From a bacterium (GTDB lineage Bacteria > Coprothermobacterota > Coprothermobacteria > Coprothermobacterales > JAADFF01), in assembly GCA_027063755.1 (NCBI GenBank), contig JAMORD010000061.1:1-10194 (forward strand): 10,194 bases of DNA, given 5' to 3'. Below, piece after piece: positions 315 through 10,194 of this stretch. Positions within the stretch are counted from its first letter, which is position 1. Every line of letters begins with the position of its first letter. A program made the position numbers and the translations under genes. Below the pieces are notes generated by a model. The model did not search any database and was not told where the DNA came from. It saw nothing but the letters and a program-made list of their open reading frames with translations.

Positions 315-521
315 GTATATATAGGTGATGAGCGCACATATGAAAACGCTGTAGTGCTGAGGGCTGTTGTCTCCACCGACGGCATGACAGCCGACTGGGC
401 AAGGCTACCATATGACTTCCTTGACCATGTAGCCCGCAGAATAGTAGGCGAGGTAAGGGGCATAAACAGGGGGGCATATGATATCACATCAAAGCCACCG
501 GGGACCATAGAGTGGGAGTGA
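315..521 (+). pseudogene. guaA: GMP synthase C-terminal remnant (guaA 3' end)
   Basis: The reading frame from 315 to the TGA at 519-521 encodes the dimerisation-domain end of glutamine-hydrolysing GMP synthase, the enzyme that turns XMP into GMP. Recognisable blocks are [43 protein letters not shown] and the terminal [14 protein letters not shown]. There is no start codon or upstream domain: a TGA in frame at 312-314 closes the frame and unrelated A+T-rich sequence lies beyond. The usual RVVYDI appears here as RGAYDI, possibly early decay. The fragment keeps its own terminator at 539-565. It is a 3' remnant left when foreign DNA joined the gene. An intact guaA would be expected further left, outside this window. 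Confidence 0.85.
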
Positions 522-538
522 GGTGCTTTTAAAGCTTG

Positions 539-624: not shown

Positions 625-1446
625 TTGCGTGTACCTATTGTTAAAACACCTACAATGTATCTTGATGACCTTGGCGTGTGGGTGAAACTGGAAAACCTCC
701 AGTATACAGGTAGCATAAAGGTGCGTCCTGCTTACTTTATATTGGAAGATGCCATGAGAAAAGGGATACTGAAGAAGGGAGATACCTTTGTAGAGGCTTC
801 TTCTGGCAACACGGCCATTGCCATGGCACACCTTGCCCCTATACTTGGGCTGAAGTTTAAGGTGGTGCTCCCCACAGATGCGTCCCCAGAGAGAAAAAAG
901 ATACTACGCTATCTTGGTGCCGATGTGATAGAAGTTGAAAGGGACAAGGTAATAGATACAGTAAGGCATATGGCAGAAGAAGGGGGCTATTTCTACACAG
1001 CCCAGCACTACACACCTATAAACGGTCTTGCCCACGAGCTGACAACGGGCCCTGAAGCCCTTGCCGACCTTCCCGATGTGCCCGACTGCATAGCCCTTGG
1101 AGTGGGGACCGGTGGGACCATATCGGGACTTGCCCATTTCTTCAGAAAGCTGAAACCTGATATCTATGTAGTTGGTATCAGACCAAAGGAGGGCACGGTG
1201 ATAGAAGGCCTTAGCAGAAACTACCTACCTGCATATGACAAAGATGCTGTGGATACAGAGATAGAGATTGCCCCTGAGGAGGTGTGGGAGTTTCACGGCT
1301 ACCTTGCCAAGAAACATGGACTATTTCTTGGCTATTCGGCAGCTGCTAACATATTAATAGCCCATAGGCTGAAGACAGAGAGAAGGTGCGACATTGTCTT
1401 TACCGTAGCCCCTGACGGCGGAGATAGGTATATAAGTAGGTTGTAG
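625..1446 (+). CDS. Cysteine synthase-like PLP enzyme (CysK/CysM family)
   Basis: A cytosolic fold-type II PLP enzyme, most likely making cysteine from an activated serine and sulfide. Numbered from the TTG start it has 273 residues, slightly short for a family that is usually about 300. Motifs: GSIKVR with the PLP-binding lysine at K32 (relatives usually have K-D-R), ASSGNT at 58-63 with N62 contacting the cofactor ring, the phosphate loop GTGGTISG at 161-168, GYSAA near 236-240, and PDGGDRYIS at 263-271 near the end. I chose TTG 625 because GGAGG (612-616) sits 8 nt upstream. An earlier in-frame start at 523 would run through the guaA terminator. The last 15 codons recur, diverged, at 6725-6772. 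The related beta-cystathionine or threonine synthase-type activities cannot be excluded. Confidence 0.85.
   Translation: MRVPIVKTPTMYLDDLGVWVKLENLQYTGSIKVRPAYFILEDAMRKGILKKGDTFVEASSGNTAIAMAHLAPILGLKFKVVLPTDASPERKKILRYLGADVIEVERDKVIDTVRHMAEEGGYFYTAQHYTPINGLAHELTTGPEALADLPDVPDCIALGVGTGGTISGLAHFFRKLKPDIYVVGIRPKEGTVIEGLSRNYLPAYDKDAVDTEIEIAPEEVWEFHGYLAKKHGLFLGYSAAANILIAHRLKTERRCDIVFTVAPDGGDRYISRL
1399..1446 (+). repeat. Left copy of the cysteine synthase 3'-end repeat
   Basis: These 48 bases, the last 15 codons plus stop of the cysteine synthase-like gene, align without gaps to 6725-6772. There are 9 mismatches, nearly all synonymous, and 14 of 15 residues are identical. The pair brackets the A+T-rich operon like left and right junctions of an inserted element. 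Confidence 0.85.
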
Positions 1447-1469
1447 ATAAAAATTGGATTATTATGTAG

Positions 1470-1475: not shown

Positions 1476-1513
1476 GTAAATGATTTTATTAAAACTTGTT
1501 GGAGGCGTATGTA

Positions 1514-3898
1514 GTGGATTGGAGACAACTTGTTGAACCTATGGTCAGCGTATTAAGATCTGCTCGTTGTGCAGGCACATACATAATTTCCCGATCTATT
1601 TATTACTTTTTAAAGAAATGCTATGTTGATGTCATCTCTTCTCAGCTTATGTATCATTCTGCCTTTGCAACACAGGCAGTTAGTTCTATTGATGATATTT
1701 GTGATGATTTAGGAGAACCGTCCAAAAGAGATAGTCTTGTTAGGTGTTTTTTGTGTTCACTAGATAAATTAGTTGGTTATGTTATAGATGAATCTGGAAA
1801 TGTTATAGATCCTTATGTGTATTGGCGTATATCCCTTATGGTGAATCCTTATTTGCTATGGAGTTATTGGGCCTTAAAAAAAGGTTTATCTTGTAAGATA
1901 GATGCTTTGGATGATTTCCTTATACCTCTTAGAAGGTCTATTCAGCTTGACTCTCCTATTGATAGGCATGTTCATTTTGAATCCTCTTTGTATCCTGATG
2001 ATTTGATGAGTTTTCTTCTAAGTAATGAGGGAATTTTATGGTATTCGAATGTGAAGAGAAAGATGGAGAAAAATCGATCTAGAAATAGCGTTAAACCAGA
2101 TAGGTTTGTTCCTATAGTACCAGCAGATAAGAGAATTGTAAGTGTTGAAAAGTTGTGGGATGAATTTCCGCATTATACACTTACGCGTTATGGAAAAAGA
2201 CTTTGGCAAAACATGATTGTAAGTACCTGGGAGATGTTTGTTTCCTTATCTGGGAATATTCTTCTTCTAGGCAGAAAGCCTTCTTCCATGGATATTGCTA
2301 TATTCCTTTCTGGTAATTTTACAAGTCGCCCCTTTGTTATATGTAAGGATTTTCCGACACTAACACGATGTCTTTTACAGGTTGTATGGAATGAGTGGAA
2401 TGACAACCGAAAAAGGATTTTGCTGTCCGACTATGCTGTGTTTGCTTTGATCCTTTCTAATATTTTGTGGGCATCATTTGGTGATACTAGAGTTGAAGGA
2501 TTGAAAATATTTGCGGAAGGTATATATAGTCATCCTCTTAAGGATATATCAAAGGGAATAAGAAAGCAACTAGTAAAAAGGTATTTGAAAGGAAAAACTG
2601 TTACTCATAGTAGTTCTAAGGTTATTTATTGGTACGAGAGAAGTATATTGAGAAGAATGGGAACCAGCAATGCGACAGAATTAAGAATTTCTCTTCTAGA
2701 TAACCATTTTGATGGCGGAAAACTTGAAAATACACTTGGTGTGATTCAAAGAGATTTGCAAGAAATAGAAGATAAAAAGAAAATAGATGTTGTTCTGCAT
2801 TATATAAAGTATATTAGGAACGAAAAGGAGAGAAGCGATCTAATATATAACCTTTTTAGTGGAAGAGTTCATAAATATGTAAAGAAGTGGGTTAATGAAA
2901 CAGAGTCTACATTCCTTTATTTAATTAATAATGTCGGTAAAGATGAGATTAGAGTTATTGCAGGAATTGATGCTGCTTCTGATGAGATGTGGACACCTGT
3001 ATGGTTGCTGGCGCCTTTTTATAGGTTTTGGTATGTTGGTGTTTTATTATACGCGAGTAAGTTAAAACTTGATTTTAGAAGAATGACCTTTCATGCTGGC
3101 GAAGATTTTCTTGATATTGTTAGTGGTATTCGCCGTATGTTTGATGTTCAGATGATGATAGATGAGTTTGGTACAGGTATTAAAGGTATTGGCCATGGTA
3201 TAGCCTTTGGTGTTGATCCTTTCCATATGGGTTTAGGAACTTCCGTTATACCGTTTTTTGATTATTTTATGAATATTTGGTTCCTTACGTACCTTTATGA
3301 AAGTTATTCTATGCCAGATGGTTATTCCATGGAGTTTAAAGGGGTTATAAGAAAAGAGATGAAAAATCTTACAAGTAAGATAGGGATGCCAGACTTATCT
3401 TTGGAGGATTGGATGATGATGTATCCGCTGTTGTTTAAAGTACCGGCACTTTTTATGGGAGAAATATTCAATCATGGTTTGGTTAAGAGAATTTGGTATA
3501 CATCCAATGGTCTTGAGCAATTATGTGATAGTGGGAAAAATGTTTCTAGTCTTATTAAAGTTATGCGTGCTTTGACATCTGAAGAGAAGAATAACAAGGC
3601 GAAAATACTAGTATCACCAATATTTCCTCCTGAGGTGCTTTCTGTTAGTAAACAAGAAGAAATTGTTAGAATGCTTTCTGACTTGATAAAGAAAGGTATT
3701 AATAGAAAAAAAATAACACCTGAGATTTGTGTTACCTCTAATATGCTTATCAGGGATATTAAGGATCCTTTTATCCATCCATGGGCTTCTCACTATGCAG
3801 AAAATGGGGAGTATAGTGTGGGAACAGATAATCCATTGTTTACCTTATCTATTCCCGAACTTGAACTTTATTTCTTACATAGAAAAAGGAGGGGATAG
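1514..3898 (+). CDS. rdrB: RADAR adenosine deaminase RdrB
   Basis: This 794-residue protein carries a full adenosine deaminase active site spread over a very long chain. Numbered from the GTG start: H152-V-H154 (metal ligands), GID at 484-486, H527-A-G-E530 (metal ligand and catalytic Glu), GIGH561G, and GTD772NP near the C-terminus (metal-ligand Asp). Ordinary adenosine deaminases have about 350 residues; here roughly 330 residues separate HxH from GID, and about 210 separate GHG from TDNP. That size and layout match RdrB, the RADAR effector that deaminates adenosine nucleotides or RNA to inosine during phage infection. GTG 1514 is chosen because GGAGG (1501-1505) lies 8 nt upstream. The stop is 1 nt before the ATPase start, so the two are co-translated. 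The second Asp of the usual TDDP motif is Asn. Catalysis is inferred from motifs, not tested. Confidence 0.85.
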   Translation: MDWRQLVEPMVSVLRSARCAGTYIISRSIYYFLKKCYVDVISSQLMYHSAFATQAVSSIDDICDDLGEPSKRDSLVRCFLCSLDKLVGYVIDESGNVIDPYVYWRISLMVNPYLLWSYWALKKGLSCKIDALDDFLIPLRRSIQLDSPIDRHVHFESSLYPDDLMSFLLSNEGILWYSNVKRKMEKNRSRNSVKPDRFVPIVPADKRIVSVEKLWDEFPHYTLTRYGKRLWQNMIVSTWEMFVSLSGNILLLGRKPSSMDIAIFLSGNFTSRPFVICKDFPTLTRCLLQVVWNEWNDNRKRILLSDYAVFALILSNILWASFGDTRVEGLKIFAEGIYSHPLKDISKGIRKQLVKRYLKGKTVTHSSSKVIYWYERSILRRMGTSNATELRISLLDNHFDGGKLENTLGVIQRDLQEIEDKKKIDVVLHYIKYIRNEKERSDLIYNLFSGRVHKYVKKWVNETESTFLYLINNVGKDEIRVIAGIDAASDEMWTPVWLLAPFYRFWYVGVLLYASKLKLDFRRMTFHAGEDFLDIVSGIRRMFDVQMMIDEFGTGIKGIGHGIAFGVDPFHMGLGTSVIPFFDYFMNIWFLTYLYESYSMPDGYSMEFKGVIRKEMKNLTSKIGMPDLSLEDWMMMYPLLFKVPALFMGEIFNHGLVKRIWYTSNGLEQLCDSGKNVSSLIKVMRALTSEEKNNKAKILVSPIFPPEVLSVSKQEEIVRMLSDLIKKGINRKKITPEICVTSNMLIRDIKDPFIHPWASHYAENGEYSVGTDNPLFTLSIPELELYFLHRKRRG

Positions 3899-3899
3899 C

Positions 3900-5015
3900 A
3901 TGCCATATACGGTTATTGATTTAACACCAGAAGACTTGTATACCAATGTGTTCGGTGTTAGCTACGGAGATAAAAATGACGGTAAGAGAAAAGATATTTT
4001 TATTGTTCAGCAGTATGTTGACTTTTTAGACGAAGTAGAACATCTTGTATCTCAAAGTAACGATGGGAAAATGAAGGGAATATTTCTTGATGGACAAAGG
4101 GGAAGTGGTAAAAGCACAATTGTATTTAATCTTTTGCGAGATGAGGATTGGTTAAATAAACATAGTTTTCTTCCTTTACCAGAACCTATAGATTTACCTT
4201 CTACAAGTATGTCGATTCTTGTATGGTTTCTTAATTTTCTCTTGTTTCTAAGCGGAGATATTGATGGAGGAGTAGATGTTTGTGAGAAATCGGATATTTC
4301 GGATTTGATGGGATTAGCTAAACAGATAGAAGTTATAGTTAATAGCGACAATGTAGACTATTGGACTCAAATTAACGTAGAAATTTTTCAGATAAGATCA
4401 AAGATAGCGAGTGTTGCTAAAAGAGTTTTGGAAAAGAAGAAAAAGAAGTATTTTCTTATTGTGGTTGATGATCTGGATATGGCGCAAAGCCAATTTATTG
4501 CTCGTTTCTTTAGGGATGTTTATTTTTTCTTAGGGGATGTGCCTCTGGTTGTGATAGGAGTGGGGGATCTTTATCATCTATTGAAAATTTTGTGTTTGTA
4601 TGAGGTTAACGAGTTGAAAGTAAATGGTTCATGTTGGGAGGGAGATGAAGAGAAATATATTATTGATGAGCGTATAAGAGCTAGATTTGAAAAGGTCTTT
4701 GGTTCTGTTTATAATATTGTTCCAATATCTAAGGTGGGTTTCTTTGTTAGGTATCCTGTTTCTAACAAAATTTCTTCGCAGACGGCTTCCAAACCGTATA
4801 AAGATGTTTCTTTGTCTACTTATATAAATAACTTTGTTGCTAATGGTTATCTATTCAGTTCATTAGTTGCATGGTTTTTGCTTCAGAATGTTTCTCTTAG
4901 GCAACTTGTAATGATCCTTACAGAAATAGAGATTGCAAGAAGAGAAGGGAAAAAAATTATGTTTCATGAGCTTTTTAAAATATTTGTCCGTAAGTTATAT
5001 GTGGATTTGATATAA
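3900..5015 (+). CDS. rdrA: RADAR-type P-loop ATPase, RdrA N-terminal half
   Basis: A 371-residue cytosolic ATPase. Walker A is G65-QRGSGKST (65-73) after the strand KGIFLD. Walker B is FLIVVDDLD (185-193). Downstream come DERIRARFEKVF (257-268), possibly holding the arginine finger, and VSLRQLVMIL (331-340), resembling a sensor-2 helix. The DDLD Walker B is typical of the KAP/AAA-like group to which RdrA belongs. RdrA usually has about 900 residues with the ATPase near its N-terminus; this chain stops after the ATPase core. ATG 3900 has AGGAGG (3887-3892) 7 nt upstream, overlapping the end of rdrB. Its position directly behind the deaminase makes a partner role likely, but assignment to RdrA rests on context plus the ATPase motifs. 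A longer in-frame start at 3729 would lie inside rdrB and is rejected. Confidence 0.75.
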   Translation: MPYTVIDLTPEDLYTNVFGVSYGDKNDGKRKDIFIVQQYVDFLDEVEHLVSQSNDGKMKGIFLDGQRGSGKSTIVFNLLRDEDWLNKHSFLPLPEPIDLPSTSMSILVWFLNFLLFLSGDIDGGVDVCEKSDISDLMGLAKQIEVIVNSDNVDYWTQINVEIFQIRSKIASVAKRVLEKKKKKYFLIVVDDLDMAQSQFIARFFRDVYFFLGDVPLVVIGVGDLYHLLKILCLYEVNELKVNGSCWEGDEEKYIIDERIRARFEKVFGSVYNIVPISKVGFFVRYPVSNKISSQTASKPYKDVSLSTYINNFVANGYLFSSLVAWFLLQNVSLRQLVMILTEIEIARREGKKIMFHELFKIFVRKLYVDLI

Positions 5016-5038
5016 GAATTTGATAGGAGGCGAAAACT

Positions 5039-6688
5039 ATGGAGAAACACAGAGTGTATCTTGCTTTTCTTCGGAATCTTCTAGATAAGTTGAGAAGGGT
5101 ATCTGCTAATAGAAATGTAAAAGCCTCTAATTTTTGGGATTTTATTAAAGAAATAGATGGTTCCCATAAGAATACATTCATTTTGCAGCAGTACTACCGT
5201 GAACTTATTTTTGAGAGAGAAGAAGATACAGGTCTGTATAAGATCTACCCATTTCCAGTTATGTTTAATCGAATTTTAGATCTTATAGTTATGACAAGCT
5301 TGTTTGCAAGAGATGAAGTTTATGATTATCGAGATCTTATTGATGTTCTCCGTGATTTTATAGACGAGTTTGAAAAATATCTGGATATGTATCCGGAAAT
5401 GACCTGTAGAGAAGGGTGTGAATGGAATAGGAAAGAAAAAAGAAAACGGGAATCTGAGGAAATTTCATTGAGTGATTCAGAGGATACGTGTGATCATAGA
5501 TGCAAAGATGATGAATATGTGAATGATACTGATTGTGATGTTTCGGCTGGGATGAATCCTTTTTCACATACTCTCTCCTATTATGATTTGATAGTTTCTA
5601 CTCTGACAGATAGAATTAATGAGAATGAATTTGAGATTTTAGAGAAAATGGAAGAGGAAGATTTAGAGGATGAACCTCAGGATAGTGGTAACAAAAAGTA
5701 TCAGGAGAATAAATTATCTACTATAAAATCATTTTATTATGAACTAATGCGATTTGGTATTTTTCCCCAAAGTGCATATACTGCAGGTCTAGATAAAGTT
5801 GCTATAACTGTTGATTTGCCGTTAGGACGTGTTAAAAAGGCGATTGTTGTTTCTTTGACTTTGGCAAAATGGCTTGCTGAGTTTGTTGTAGACGAGGAAT
5901 TTGTACTAAATATAGATGGATGTTGCTTTGATGTTAGTGAAACCATATTTTCCGAAACATTGGTACCAATTTTAAATGATAAAAGACGACTTCAAGAAAT
6001 TAGAGATTATGTTATAGCTCAAGGTCTTACTTCAAGGGCAAGAAACATAAACGTTATTGGTTTTGAGATAGTTCCCTTGTTGGCAACTGGTATCTTCTAT
6101 TTACCTTTTATTAATTGTATTTGCCCTTCATGTAGTATCAATGTTAAACTGAATCAACCTACTGCTTTGAGATTTGCCAATATCTATCCTAAGATGATAG
6201 GAACTATTGTATCAAGCGTTAAATGTGATTGTTTTAAAGGTTGGTATGAATGGGAGAAATTTGTATGGTGTTATCAGGAATGTAAGTATCTATTCGAATT
6301 TAGAGAAATTGTGGATAAAAAGAATAGACAGGTAAGTAATTATAGGGGTAAGAAAAAGTCAAAGGGACAAAATACCGGTGTTAAACCGAGAACCCCAGTA
6401 TATAAAAATATTGTTAAAGCATTTGATAAAATCTTTGCTAATAAATCTGATAAGGCTTATAAGTATTGGAAGAAAGAGTTATCGTTTCTTTTTAATCATA
6501 AGCATCTTTCTGATGATGATATAGAATCAATAAGCAGCGGGGCAAAGTTAGTAGCGGTAGAGCTTTATAAATGGCTTGAACATAAGAAAGACAGACAAGG
6601 AAATGACATTTATAATTATGGAAAAAAGACTCAGAGAATTCGGGATTTATGTGTTTGGTTGTATAGGAATAATGAACAGGGTCAGTAA
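5039..6688 (+). CDS. Third operon protein, probable detached RdrA C-terminal half
   Basis: A 549-residue soluble protein that I do not recognise by a signature motif. AGGAGG (5025-5030) lies 8 nt before ATG 5039, and 23 nt separate it from the ATPase stop, so it is translated independently in the same operon. Residues 1-120 look helical. Residues 123-215 form a charged, acidic low-complexity stretch with scattered Cys. Residues 225-430 look like a globular domain with a Cys cluster, C360-I-C-P-S-C365 and C396-D-C398, plus C411 and C415, that could bind zinc. Residues 430-450 are basic. With the 371-residue ATPase it sums to 920, close to one full RdrA, so I infer that it is the C-terminal part of RdrA as a separate chain. 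It is not like the known RADAR accessory membrane proteins, since no transmembrane segments are evident. It could instead be a new third component. Confidence 0.6.
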   Translation: MEKHRVYLAFLRNLLDKLRRVSANRNVKASNFWDFIKEIDGSHKNTFILQQYYRELIFEREEDTGLYKIYPFPVMFNRILDLIVMTSLFARDEVYDYRDLIDVLRDFIDEFEKYLDMYPEMTCREGCEWNRKEKRKRESEEISLSDSEDTCDHRCKDDEYVNDTDCDVSAGMNPFSHTLSYYDLIVSTLTDRINENEFEILEKMEEEDLEDEPQDSGNKKYQENKLSTIKSFYYELMRFGIFPQSAYTAGLDKVAITVDLPLGRVKKAIVVSLTLAKWLAEFVVDEEFVLNIDGCCFDVSETIFSETLVPILNDKRRLQEIRDYVIAQGLTSRARNINVIGFEIVPLLATGIFYLPFINCICPSCSINVKLNQPTALRFANIYPKMIGTIVSSVKCDCFKGWYEWEKFVWCYQECKYLFEFREIVDKKNRQVSNYRGKKKSKGQNTGVKPRTPVYKNIVKAFDKIFANKSDKAYKYWKKELSFLFNHKHLSDDDIESISSGAKLVAVELYKWLEHKKDRQGNDIYNYGKKTQRIRDLCVWLYRNNEQGQ

Positions 6689-6698
6689 CTGCTAAGGC

Positions 6699-6720
6699 GA
6701 GGGGAATTTATTTTCCCCTC
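6699..6720 (+). terminator. Hairpin at the end of the RADAR-like operon
   Basis: GAGGGGAA (6699-6706) pairs perfectly with TTCCCCTC (6713-6720) across the loop TTTATT, 11 nt after the last stop codon. The T tract behind it is poor, since the cysteine synthase remnant starts at 6725, so termination may be weak. Confidence 0.6.
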
Positions 6721-6724
6721 TTAC

Positions 6725-6772
6725 TTCACCGTAGCTCCCGACGGCGGCGACAGGTATATAAGCAAGCTGTAA
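6725..6772 (+). pseudogene. Second copy of cysteine synthase 3' end
   Basis: This encodes FTVAPDGGDRYISKL followed by TAA, matching the last 15 residues of the intact gene (FTVAPDGGDRYISRL). The nine base differences are synonymous, apart from one Arg/Lys change and TAG versus TAA in the stop codon. It therefore diverged while still coding and is not a fresh duplication. It has no start and homology ends abruptly on the left. Its stop lies 2 nt from the stop of the convergent GT2 pseudogene, the spacing expected of native neighbours. This suggests that it is the original resident gene end, cut off by the cassette. Confidence 0.85.
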
Positions 6773-6774
6773 AT

Positions 6775-8014
6775 TTAAAATCTTGGAGTTTTATCCCATT
6801 TAATGGGTGCACTTTTCTTCGGGCTTTCCGTTGTTGTATCCAAGCATTGGCCAATATTACTAGCCATGCTTGGGCATGTGTAAAATATATAATGGTTGCT
6901 ATGATGATATTTTCGGCGTTAGCTCACCTTCTAAAAATGCCGTCACAATAAGTTGTGTTGCATATATCCACCACGATTCAAACCATAGGGTTAATAGGGG
7001 TAGATGAGTGCCTGCTGAGAATATACCCAAAAGACCCTATACAAACCATAAGTCTGATAGTATGACAAATGTGAATGAAAAACACATAATAAACAGATAT
7101 TAGTTGTATGTCGTTCCAGAGTTTTCTACGACTGCGATACTCCTTTGTCGCTATGATCTTCTGCACAAGGTATAGGTTGTCTATCATCCATCGTGTGCGT
7201 TGTTTGAACCATACGGAAAATTTTTCTGATTCTTGTTTCCACGATTGAGAACGGGGTTCTATGGCTATGAGATAGTCACGGGCTGTGAGGGTAAGACTCT
7301 GTTCGGCATCTTTGGCAAGGGCGTATTTGTCCCAGCCTCCTATTTCATCGAGCATATGCCTTTTTATCATTATGTTTGTGCCAGGGAAGCTACCTAACTT
7401 AAGGAGTTTCCACCTGCCAGATTGCATAGTTATCTAATATAGCAAGCTTTCTAACCCGATCATGGTTGTTAGTATCGTCTTGTACATGTTGTGAGACCGA
7501 TAGTATCCGGCAGCCCCTCCATATTTTTCGTTTTCCATGAGTTTGTAGACAAGGAGATTTACGGCATCGGGGTTAGGTCTATTATCGGCATCGTAAACGG
7601 CGATAACTTCTTCGTAGCTAATGTGCCTTCCGTAGTTGAGAATACGGGATTTTCCTTTAGGTTCTCCCGGTGGCACTTTCACATGATGTATATTGACAAA
7701 TATGCCTGCCCAGAATTCGGCTATGTCACCTGTTCTGTCAGTGCTATTGTCGTTGAGTGGGTATATGTTCATAGGGCCTTCATATTCAAGAGATGCTATT
7801 GCATCAAGTGTTTCAAATAAGACAACTTCTTCATTGGGGGGCAGGGATAAAAACGGCTACACTATGGTATGTTAGGCTCTTGCTCCATGGTTTCTACTTT
7901 GTATATGATGCCCAATATACCAAGAATAGTGTAATAAAACATGATGCCCCAGAAGGCTACCACGATAAAGTAAAACAGCCAAGATAGTGCTTTAATAAAT
8001 AGCATTGCTGTCAT
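6775..8014 (-). pseudogene. Decayed family 2 glycosyltransferase (processive, membrane-bound type)
   Basis: Read leftwards from ATG 8014-8012 (start MTAMLFIKAL, then a long hydrophobic segment) to TAA 6777-6775 (ending KWDKTPRF). The piecewise product is about 413 residues, normal for bacterial GT2 synthases of this type. Landmarks: VAVFIPA...NEE, NDNSTDRTGD, YDADNRPNPDA (DxD), SFPGTN, GGWD, KDAEQSL and QRTRW, then C-terminal membrane helices. Such enzymes polymerise a polysaccharide from nucleotide sugars at the inner membrane. Lesions: frameshifts near 7855-7867, at the run of six G at 7836-7841, near 7060-7075, near 6895-6915 and near 6795-6808; in-frame TAG at 7434-7436 and 7037-7039. The start overlaps the upstream gene's stop as ATGA, a trace of translational coupling. 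The family call is firm; the polymer made is unknown. Confidence 0.85.
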
Positions 8015-8688
8015 TGTGTGTGATCCCTTATAATTTTCTCATTTATCTCCTGATTTTCTGTTGCCGATATGGTATTATATATTTCCATATACTTTCTCAG
8101 TTCTTCTCCCAATATTCTGGGATGTTTTCCCAGCTTCTGGAGTATTCTATTTATCACTATATTGGCTTTATCTGTATCTGTTCCCTGTAGCATGATGACA
8201 AGGGTGTTATTTCCAGTCTTCCCTACTATGTTGTATCCCCTTCTGATGCTATCGAGTATGGTATTACCTATAATTCTTAAAAGGGTCTCGGGCTCTTTGC
8301 CCAGAGGGGTTTTTATCTTTATGAGATTTTCTTCCTCTGTGTATATCAGGGCTACTATGAGCCACCACGACAGGAATATGGTGGCAAAGAGCAGTTGATG
8401 GGTAATTAGTTGAACCTGATTGACACGCTAGTGTAGCATGGCATAGGTCACCACAAATAGCGATAGTCCAAATATGATGGTGCTCGCAATAATGATACAA
8501 CTGAGAATAGAGTAGGTATACATGATAATAAATGTTAGCAACGCAACGACAAGCAGTGGGAGAAATTCTACAGCTGATAAAATATGACCTCCTATATATG
8601 TTGGTATGATTCCTATTATCGATAACACACCTATGAGGTATGTTTTTACCTACTTTATGCGATATGCGATTTGATACCAATTGTTCAA
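8011..8688 (-). pseudogene. Decayed membrane protein of the polysaccharide cluster
   Basis: One frame runs leftwards from about TTG 8688 to TGA 8013-8011, broken only by TAG at 8650-8652 and 8428-8430. Reading through both gives about 225 residues. The first half holds several hydrophobic segments (for example FLPLLVVALLTFII, IIIASTIIFGLSLF and LLFATIFLSWWLIVALIY). The soluble second half includes TPLGKEPETLL, NTLVIMLQGTDTDKAN and GKHPRILGEELRKYMEIY. I do not recognise the family. Its stop overlaps the GT2 start by ATGA, and GH5 lies upstream on the same strand, so it was probably an accessory membrane subunit of polymer synthesis or export. The start is uncertain: no convincing ribosome binding site precedes 8688. 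Confidence 0.6.
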
Positions 8689-8725
8689 CTTACGTTTTTC
8701 TACCTAATATTTGCTTTATATAAGT

Positions 8726-8754
8726 ATTATATCTCAAGATAAGAACTGTTCCAA
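8726..8754 (-). promoter_or_regulatory. Sigma70-like promoter ahead of the membrane protein and GT2
   Basis: On the minus strand TTGGAA (8754-8749), a 17-bp spacer and a perfect TATAAT (8731-8726) lie in the gap between the GH5 pseudogene end and the membrane protein pseudogene. Transcription would start about 30 nt before the proposed start codon. Confidence 0.5.
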
Positions 8755-8785
8755 TGATATATTGCTATAAAAATTTGTTTTAATT

Positions 8786-9772
8786 TTATAATATCTTTTC
8801 TTTGGGCTGGCACGGATATAGCACGGCCATGAGCACAAGATGCCTATCGCTTCTCCACTGGTAATACTCTATATCGTAGAGTTGGCCATCGGCATTGATG
8901 ACAAAGGGTATGCGGGCATACAGCAGAGAGCAGGACATGTATGAGGCAAAGACCATCTGCGGGCTATGGTATATGTGTCTCCTTTGTTATAGTTGCCGGG
9001 CATCCATGCTCCAACCCATGTATGCAAGCCCGTTTTCTTCTTCCACTGCAATGCCGACTTCATATAAGAGATTTTTCGTACTCTGTGCCTGTGGTCCACT
9101 GCTTGTTTGTGCCTATCTTGGGGTTGGGGCCTGCTGTGTAGAAGTGCCACTCTCCCATGATATAGTTGTCACCTGGTGGAATATACAGCTCATCAAGATA
9201 GTACGGATTCGAGGTATAACGGGATCGTATGAATATGTACGGTATGGGTCTACTTTTCTTATGATTGGTATCACCTGTTTGTAAAACTCGTTTAGGAGAT
9301 CTGGGTAGTTATTGAGTTTTTTACCCACCTCAATAATCATGTCGTAGGACAGCAGGTAGGGATAATCTTTAAACTCATGAGCTATCTTATCCCAAAATGC
9401 CACTGAATGTTTTAGTGTATGCTGGGAAGGATGCTTGTGAAGTCTTTGGTGGCATATGCAATGAAGCCCCACCTTAAAGCAGTCGTCTACCACACGGTGC
9501 AGGAGCGCTATAGTCTCTGTGCTGTCGCCTGCCACACGTATGCGGACATGCTGAAAACCTATATTTTTAAAGTCAAGGATCACTGTGGCCGTGTAGCCCT
9601 GTCTCCACTTGTTAAATGTTACCCAGTTTGCATCTATGCCAATACCAAGCATGCGCTAATACTCTGCTGGTGATATAGGGCTATGAATAGGATTCAGAGC
9701 CTTGAGTGCAGGTATGTTGCCCAGCAGTATAGCCAGTATAGATATGATGACTGCCATCTGTTTATGTTTCAT
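8786..9772 (-). pseudogene. Decayed secreted GH5-like glycoside hydrolase (cellulase type)
   Basis: Read leftwards from ATG 9772-9770, with AAGGT 7 nt upstream, to TAA 8788-8786. The piecewise product is about 329 residues. It begins with a signal peptide (MKHKQMAV, then a hydrophobic core to about residue 20). Landmarks: MLGIGIDANW, NIGFQHVRIRV, IAHEFKDYPYLLSYDMIIEVG (probable acid/base Glu), GEWHFYTAGPNP (probable nucleophile Glu), HTWVGAWMPGNYNKGD and PFVINADGQLYDIEYYQW near the end. GH5 enzymes cleave beta-linked glucans; beside a GT2 synthase such an enzyme would trim or edit the polymer outside the membrane. Lesions: in-frame TAG 9656-9658 and frameshifts near 9205-9215, 9058-9070 and 8957-8970. 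Family assignment is good, substrate unknown. Confidence 0.8.
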
Positions 9773-9871
9773 GTCTATTACCTTCATGGGCCACATATTT
9801 TCCAATCCCTTTTTATACACATAAACGCCTTTCATAAAGATATACAATAAAAGGTGAAAGGGGTGGTTGCC

Positions 9872-10194
9872 GTGGAGTACGATCTGACAAAGCCGATAGA
9901 GATAGCAGAGGATGTTTTCTGGGTAGGTTATGTGGTACCAGATGACCCATTTCAGTGTCATGTGTACCTAATTAAGAATGGAAAAGAGAGCATTCTCATA
10001 GACCCTGGTAGCAAGATTGTGTTGCCCGTTGTGCTTGAGAAGATTGTGTCCCTTGTGCCCCTGAGAGATATCAAATATATTATCTTTCACCATCAAGACC
10101 CAGATATTACCGGCTCATTTGAGATTCTTGAGCAGCTATTTCCGGAAGGAGAGCGTTATGTTATAACCCACTGGCGTAGTGCCACCCTGCTAAA
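9872..10194 (+). CDS. MBL-fold protein, ODP-like (5' part only)
   Basis: The visible 107 residues start at GTG 9872, preceded by AAAGGGG (9857-9863) at 8 nt, and run off the right edge. After VFWVGYVVPDDPFQCHVYLI and the strand ILIDPGS (41-47) comes H73-HQDPDITGS82, the metal-binding motif of the metallo-beta-lactamase-fold group related to the oxygen-binding diiron domain of flavodiiron proteins. These domains bind two iron atoms and react with or sense oxygen or nitric oxide; some are fused to flavodoxin or signalling domains. Which fusion applies here is not visible. The gene is divergent from the GH5 pseudogene, with about 100 nt between them, and its frame is intact, unlike the decayed cluster beside it. 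Confidence 0.75.
   Translation, partial: MEYDLTKPIEIAEDVFWVGYVVPDDPFQCHVYLIKNGKESILIDPGSKIVLPVVLEKIVSLVPLRDIKYIIFHHQDPDITGSFEILEQLFPEGERYVITHWRSATLL

What the first reader, a model, noticed from the sequence alone, without database searches (positions are those of the whole stretch)
1514..6688. RADAR-like defence operon with deaminase first and a split RdrA
Seen: a 794-residue protein with all adenosine deaminase catalytic motifs, then a 371-residue P-loop ATPase, then a 549-residue protein, spaced 1 and 23 nt apart and each with a strong ribosome binding site. Known: RADAR pairs a large AAA-type ATPase RdrA (about 900 residues) with a large deaminase RdrB (about 800), and in described loci rdrA usually comes first. 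Inference: this is a RADAR variant with reversed gene order and RdrA divided into an ATPase chain and a separate C-terminal chain. The split is not a frameshift, because the gap holds a stop codon, an AGGAGG and a new ATG.
Basis: partly seen in the sequence, partly recalled or inferred. Interest (0 to 1): 0.85.

Follow-up and report, generated by a model that had tools for sequence, protein, structure and literature searches.

The report
Divergent RADAR-like three-gene defence operon
A bacterial insertion carries a very distant relative of the RADAR anti-phage system, with its RdrB-type deaminase gene first and, in place of the usual large RdrA gene, a small ATPase gene plus a third gene of unknown origin, so it may show which parts of RADAR can be separated.

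Summary
In detail: three intact, tightly packed genes (794, 371, 549 aa), each with a ribosome-binding site. The 794-aa protein is a very divergent RdrB relative: all zinc and catalytic residues, the RdrB-only signature (HAGEDF...GIR), and the RdrB side of a tree against ordinary adenosine deaminases; but it scores 135 bits where even outlying canonical RdrBs score at least 298. The 371-aa protein is an AAA+ ATPase whose best-scoring family is the N-terminal module of RdrA, but KAP-type ATPases match RdrA equally well, so RdrA descent is not proven. The 549-aa protein has the size of the missing RdrA C-lobe but no detectable similarity; that says little, since C-lobes of about half of the most divergent true RdrAs are also undetectable. 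In 101 RdrB-bearing loci RdrA lies upstream in 91 and downstream in none, so the deaminase-first order is so far unique; no second copy was found. The operon is a low-GC insertion at the 3' end of a cysteine-synthase-like gene, flanked by 51-nt repeats; a same-genus genome shows the empty site. Verdict: RADAR-like, a new variant of a known kind; 'split RdrA' is possible but unproven, and defence is untested.

The parts
1514..3898 (+). RdrB-like adenosine deaminase, 794 aa (GTG start; TTG 1496 is an alternative), all zinc and catalytic residues and the RdrB-only HAGEDF...GIR signature
3900..5015 (+). Stand-alone AAA+ ATPase, 371 aa, of the RdrA/KAP-like kind (Walker A 65-72, Walker B 188-193); covers only the extent of the RdrA N-terminal module
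5039..6688 (+). 549-aa protein without detectable relatives; candidate separate sensor/adaptor subunit (possibly the RdrA C-lobe equivalent); Cys-rich (CIC at 360-362, CDC at 396-398)
1501..1505 (+). Shine-Dalgarno GGAGG of the deaminase gene
3886..3892 (+). Shine-Dalgarno AAGGAGG of the ATPase gene, inside the deaminase 3' end
5025..5030 (+). Shine-Dalgarno AGGAGG of the 549-aa gene
6701..6717 (+). Terminator-like hairpin after the operon
   Evidence: not above the shuffle expectation
1398..1448 (+). Upstream copy of the flanking direct repeat: 3' end of the cysteine-synthase-like gene (523-1446); the copy that differs more from the relative, probably brought in by the insertion
6724..6774 (+). 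Downstream copy of the direct repeat: orphan 3' end of the same gene, followed by the sequence that follows the gene in the same-genus genome

Best explanation
A RADAR-type, nucleotide-deaminating anti-phage operon of divergent architecture, carried on a 5.3-kb insertion at the 3' end of a cysteine-synthase-like gene. The RdrB-like protein is the effector, probably deaminating (d)ATP to (d)ITP. The 371-aa AAA+ ATPase takes the place of the RdrA motor: it probably forms a ring and switches the deaminase on. The 549-aa protein most likely supplies, as a separate chain, what the RdrA C-terminal lobe supplies in RADAR (sensing infection or docking the ring). Shown here: gene structure, RdrB homology with a complete active site, an RdrA/KAP-like AAA+ module next to it, the insertion and its empty site. 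Inferred: that the ATPase descends from RdrA rather than from another KAP-like ATPase, ATP-to-ITP activity, ring formation, the role of the third protein, and defence itself.
For: Deaminase: NCBIfam RdrB 3e-7, PADLOC RdrB 4e-6, RdrB is the best match among PDB sequences; 135 bits and 99.7% against an 85-sequence RdrB profile, above ordinary ADAs at 42-90 bits; RdrB side of the tree, support 99; RdrB-only residues D531, F532, R540, A564, G566 present. ATPase: best-scoring of five families tested (RdrA 95%/30 bits, KAP 87%/22, AAA_16 52%/17, ORC-like 51%/9, STAND5 7%/1); motif-by-motif alignment with RdrA; model Z 17-20 to RdrA, 12 to the next family, with an RdrA-based alignment; same Pfam profile as canonical RdrAs. 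An RdrB-type deaminase is otherwise always next to an RdrA where assessable. Canonical RADAR turns (d)ATP into (d)ITP and RdrA stimulates RdrB (PMC9994260).
Against: Both proteins score far below canonical RADAR (135 against at least 298 bits, and 24 against at least 148 bits). KAP ATPases match the RdrA profile as well as the window ATPase does, and a tree with the ATPase held with KAP is not worse. The ATPase model was built on RdrA sequences, which favours RdrA. The N-terminal ~385 aa of the deaminase align only around HxH. The 549-aa protein has no detectable link to RdrA. Only one locus is known; no activity data.
Confidence: 0.55

Rival explanations
1. The first two genes are a RADAR-like pair, but the 549-aa protein is an unrelated accessory, sensor or regulatory subunit and not an RdrA C-lobe.
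For: No similarity to RdrA in profile comparison; about three times the Cys content of RdrA C-lobes, and none of 75 RdrAs has a C..C-spacer-C.C pattern.
Against: Its length is that of the missing RdrA part; C-lobes of about half of the most divergent true RdrAs score as low in leave-one-out, so no match says little; the (poor) model is mostly helical, as is the RdrA C-lobe.
Confidence: 0.45
2. An independent pairing: a deaminase of RdrB descent works with a KAP-like or other AAA+ ATPase that is not an RdrA, so this is a separate defence system that shares only its effector with RADAR.
For: 8 of 15 KAP ATPases reach the RdrA profile at 95% or more, as the window ATPase does; holding it with KAP gives a tree no worse than the free one (p-AU 0.66); order and size differ from every RADAR locus.
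Against: RdrA outscores KAP and three other families for this protein (profile sizes differ); the free quick tree puts it with RdrA, support 97.9 (long branches); its KAP score is below the Pfam cut-off.
Confidence: 0.3
3. A metabolic deaminase operon, not defence.
For: No assay; no other defence gene recognised in the window.
Against: Ordinary ADAs lack the RdrB signature; the operon is a low-GC insertion absent from the same-genus genome; other loci with such deaminases are RADAR.
Confidence: 0.05
4. A canonical RADAR locus broken by frameshifts, or an assembly chimera.
For: Fragmented assembly (251 contigs); genes downstream look broken compared with the relative.
Against: Three intact frames with own ribosome-binding sites; frameshifts cannot reverse gene order; both edges match the empty site in a same-genus genome.
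Confidence: 0.03

Closest known systems
RADAR (RdrA-RdrB)
   Same: A large RdrB-type deaminase with the same catalytic residues and signature motifs, encoded beside an AAA+ ATPase of RdrA/KAP-like kind in one operon
   Different: Deaminase gene first; ATPase is 371 aa instead of about 640-1180; extra 549-aa gene; both proteins far outside the canonical score range and below NCBIfam cut-offs; no PADLOC RdrA match
Cad1 (CARF-adenosine deaminase of type III CRISPR)
   Same: A defence deaminase that turns ATP into ITP (abstract of PMC11645235)
   Different: Cad1 is a CARF-deaminase fusion in type III CRISPR loci; no CARF match was reported here
KAP-family P-loop ATPases
   Same: Second-best family for the ATPase (87%, 22 bits)
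   Different: Score below the Pfam cut-off (17.3 against 20); no deaminase partner known to me

Membership tests
RADAR / RdrB | Zinc ligands and catalytic glutamate of the deaminase (E. coli RdrB H152, H154, H498, E501, H530) | tested here: met
   H152, H154, H527, E530, H561 and D772 align
RADAR / RdrB | RdrB-specific residues absent from ordinary ADAs (D and F after HAGE, GxR, GH.xAxG) | tested here: met
   Invariant or nearly so in 88 RdrBs, absent or rare in 15 ADAs, present here
RADAR / RdrB | Groups with RdrB rather than ordinary ADAs in a tree | tested here: met
   15 ADAs split from RdrBs plus window with support 99; inside or sister to canonical RdrBs is undecided (p-AU 0.37)
RADAR / RdrB | Profile score within the range of known RdrBs | tested here: not met
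   135 bits against at least 298 for the most divergent RdrBs with relatives left out; 29 bits against the NCBIfam cut-off of 800
RADAR / RdrA | RdrA-type N-terminal AAA+ module | tested here: inconclusive
   RdrA is the best of five families (95%, 30 bits), but KAP ATPases match RdrA equally well and the tree does not decide; far below canonical RdrAs
RADAR / RdrA | Single ~900-aa chain with AAA+ module and helical C-terminal lobe | tested here: not met
   The ATPase chain ends at 371 aa, at about the end of the RdrA AAA+ module
RADAR / RdrA | C-terminal lobe present in any chain | tested here: inconclusive
   No match for the 549-aa protein, but C-lobes of about half of the most divergent true RdrAs have none either
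RADAR locus | rdrA directly upstream of rdrB | tested here: not met
   RdrA upstream in 91 of 101 loci, downstream in none, 10 cut or without detectable RdrA; reversed here
RADAR function | ATP/dATP to ITP/dITP, ring and dodecamer assembly, phage protection | not testable with these tools
   needs biochemistry

The most novel reading that the evidence does not exclude
A separate three-subunit defence type in which an RdrB-descended deaminase is run by a stand-alone KAP/RdrA-like motor and a separate, so far unknown sensor protein: either an ancestral-like unfused RADAR or an independent system built around the same effector.
Probability: 0.4. Interest if true: 0.72.

Novelty: new variant of a known kind. 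Interest (0 to 1): 0.52.

Why it matters
In canonical RADAR the motor and the presumed sensor lobe sit on one chain, and how infection is sensed is unknown. A natural version with a separate motor and a separate third protein would let motor, sensor candidate and deaminase be removed or swapped one at a time in laboratory strains. It also extends RdrB-type deaminases well beyond what PADLOC and NCBIfam models recognise with confidence.

Tried and rejected
Relatives of the operon: scans of 85k genomes, viral contigs, plasmids, phages and several hundred whole genomes gave only canonical RADAR loci or ordinary deaminases and no second copy of this architecture; the alignment scan requires a conserved HAGED pattern and kept the best 80 of 343, so relatives that vary there could be missed. 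ATPase controls: a first set of 27 mostly non-ATPase controls reached at most 2% against RdrA and looked convincing; P-loop controls, then KAP, AAA_16, STAND5 and ORC-like sets showed that this does not prove RdrA descent, so the claim was lowered. Structure of the 549-aa protein from one sequence: mean pLDDT 40, not searched. Split RdrAs as precedent: L080 is a frameshift relative to L041 (overlapping matches); L050 and L067 carry RdrA in two frames in canonical order, not checked further. Clade-wise RdrA profiles against the 549-aa protein: nothing. Weak Pfam hit Iron_traffic (0.007) of the 549-aa protein: short, below cut-off. AU test on the full RdrB tree did not finish.

Full report
Observation. 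The three genes are real and intact: 1514-3898 (794 aa), 3900-5015 (371 aa), 5039-6688 (549 aa), separated by 1 and 23 nt, each with a clear Shine-Dalgarno sequence. Their GC is 33-35%, against 48% in the upstream gene and 41% downstream.

Deaminase. NCBIfam and PADLOC RdrB models hit weakly but first, and RdrB is the best match among PDB sequences. An alignment with plasmid RdrBs keeps every zinc and catalytic residue. Against a profile of 85 RdrBs from genomes, plasmids and viral contigs the protein scores 135 bits, and 99.7% by profile comparison over 364 columns. Ordinary ADAs score 42-90 bits; the most divergent RdrBs, with relatives left out, 298 bits or more. In a tree 15 ADAs separate from RdrBs plus the window with support 99; the window has the longest end branch (3.28), and inside or sister to canonical RdrBs is undecided. 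RdrB-only residues are all present. Next to the last zinc ligand it has Asn (N773) where 84 of 88 RdrBs have Asp; three others share Asn.

ATPase. Against a 75-sequence RdrA profile the 371-aa protein reaches 94%, with an alignment over Walker A, the following LP..P stretch, Walker B, a K-containing motif and an Arg in the sensor-2 region. An AlphaFold model made with RdrA N-termini (mean pLDDT 76) matches RdrA at Z 17-20, ORC at 12, but its alignment favours RdrA. Its Pfam profile is that of canonical RdrAs. A stricter control tempers this: 8 of 15 KAP ATPases reach 95% or more against RdrA. The window protein itself scores best with RdrA (95%, 30 bits), then KAP (87%, 22 bits), AAA_16 (52%, 17 bits), ORC-like and STAND5. 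A quick tree puts it with RdrA (97.9), yet a tree holding it with KAP is no worse (p-AU 0.66). It is therefore an RdrA/KAP-like AAA+ ATPase, RdrA being the most likely kin because of its deaminase neighbour. It lies far from canonical RdrAs (24 against at least 148 bits).

Third protein. No relatives in any collection searched, and no match to RdrA beyond controls. This is not decisive: when the C-terminal parts of the 24 most divergent RdrAs are tested the same way, about half score below 1%. E. coli RdrA has 947 residues and the ATPase corresponds to about its first 400-476, so the missing part is about 470-550 residues, near 549. Structure prediction from one sequence failed.

Gene order. 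In 101 loci with an RdrB, RdrA lies upstream in 91 and downstream in none; the other ten are cut by contig ends or lack a detectable RdrA. Eight of these loci came from separate genome searches and all are canonical. The window's order is a true departure.

Insertion. The 3' end of the cysteine-synthase-like gene (1398-1448) is repeated at 6724-6774. In the same-genus genome the gene is followed directly by the sequence that in the window begins after the second copy, and that genome has no such deaminase. So the operon is a 5.3-kb insertion at a gene 3' end, without a recombinase gene of its own. A fragment of guaA lies at 320-523, and the contig with the complete guaA carries another 3' fragment of the cysteine-synthase-like gene: the region looks like a repeatedly used integration site.

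Mechanism. By homology: infection is sensed by the ATPase plus third protein, which stimulate the deaminase to turn (d)ATP into (d)ITP, as shown for RADAR (PMC9994260). Only the anatomy is shown here; the rest is inference.

Verdict. RADAR-like operon of divergent architecture: a new variant of a known kind. It is not filed as canonical RADAR, because gene order, RdrA architecture and family scores were tested and not met.

Noticed in passing
window 320-523 and L110 6585-6788: A 204-nt copy of the 3' end of guaA (92% identical to the complete guaA on contig C62) lies just before the cysteine-synthase-like gene, suggesting another integrative insertion at guaA.
   Followed up: partly
L110 (G000:C62) 9067-9207: A third copy of the cysteine-synthase 3' end (76% identical) lies on another contig of the same genome, after guaA and a 683-codon minus-strand frame without Pfam match; the integration site seems to have been used repeatedly.
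   Followed up: partly
window 6978-10194: Genes downstream of the operon are intact in the same-genus genome (L108: 415-aa glycosyltransferase-like and following genes) but appear in fragments here: decay or assembly errors.
   Followed up: no
window 3830-3832 (deaminase residue 773): Asn replaces the usual Asp next to the last zinc ligand; 3 of 88 RdrBs share this; possible effect on substrate choice.
   Followed up: partly
L146 3274-5199 (G325): A short RdrA (641 aa) in an otherwise canonical RADAR locus.
   Followed up: no
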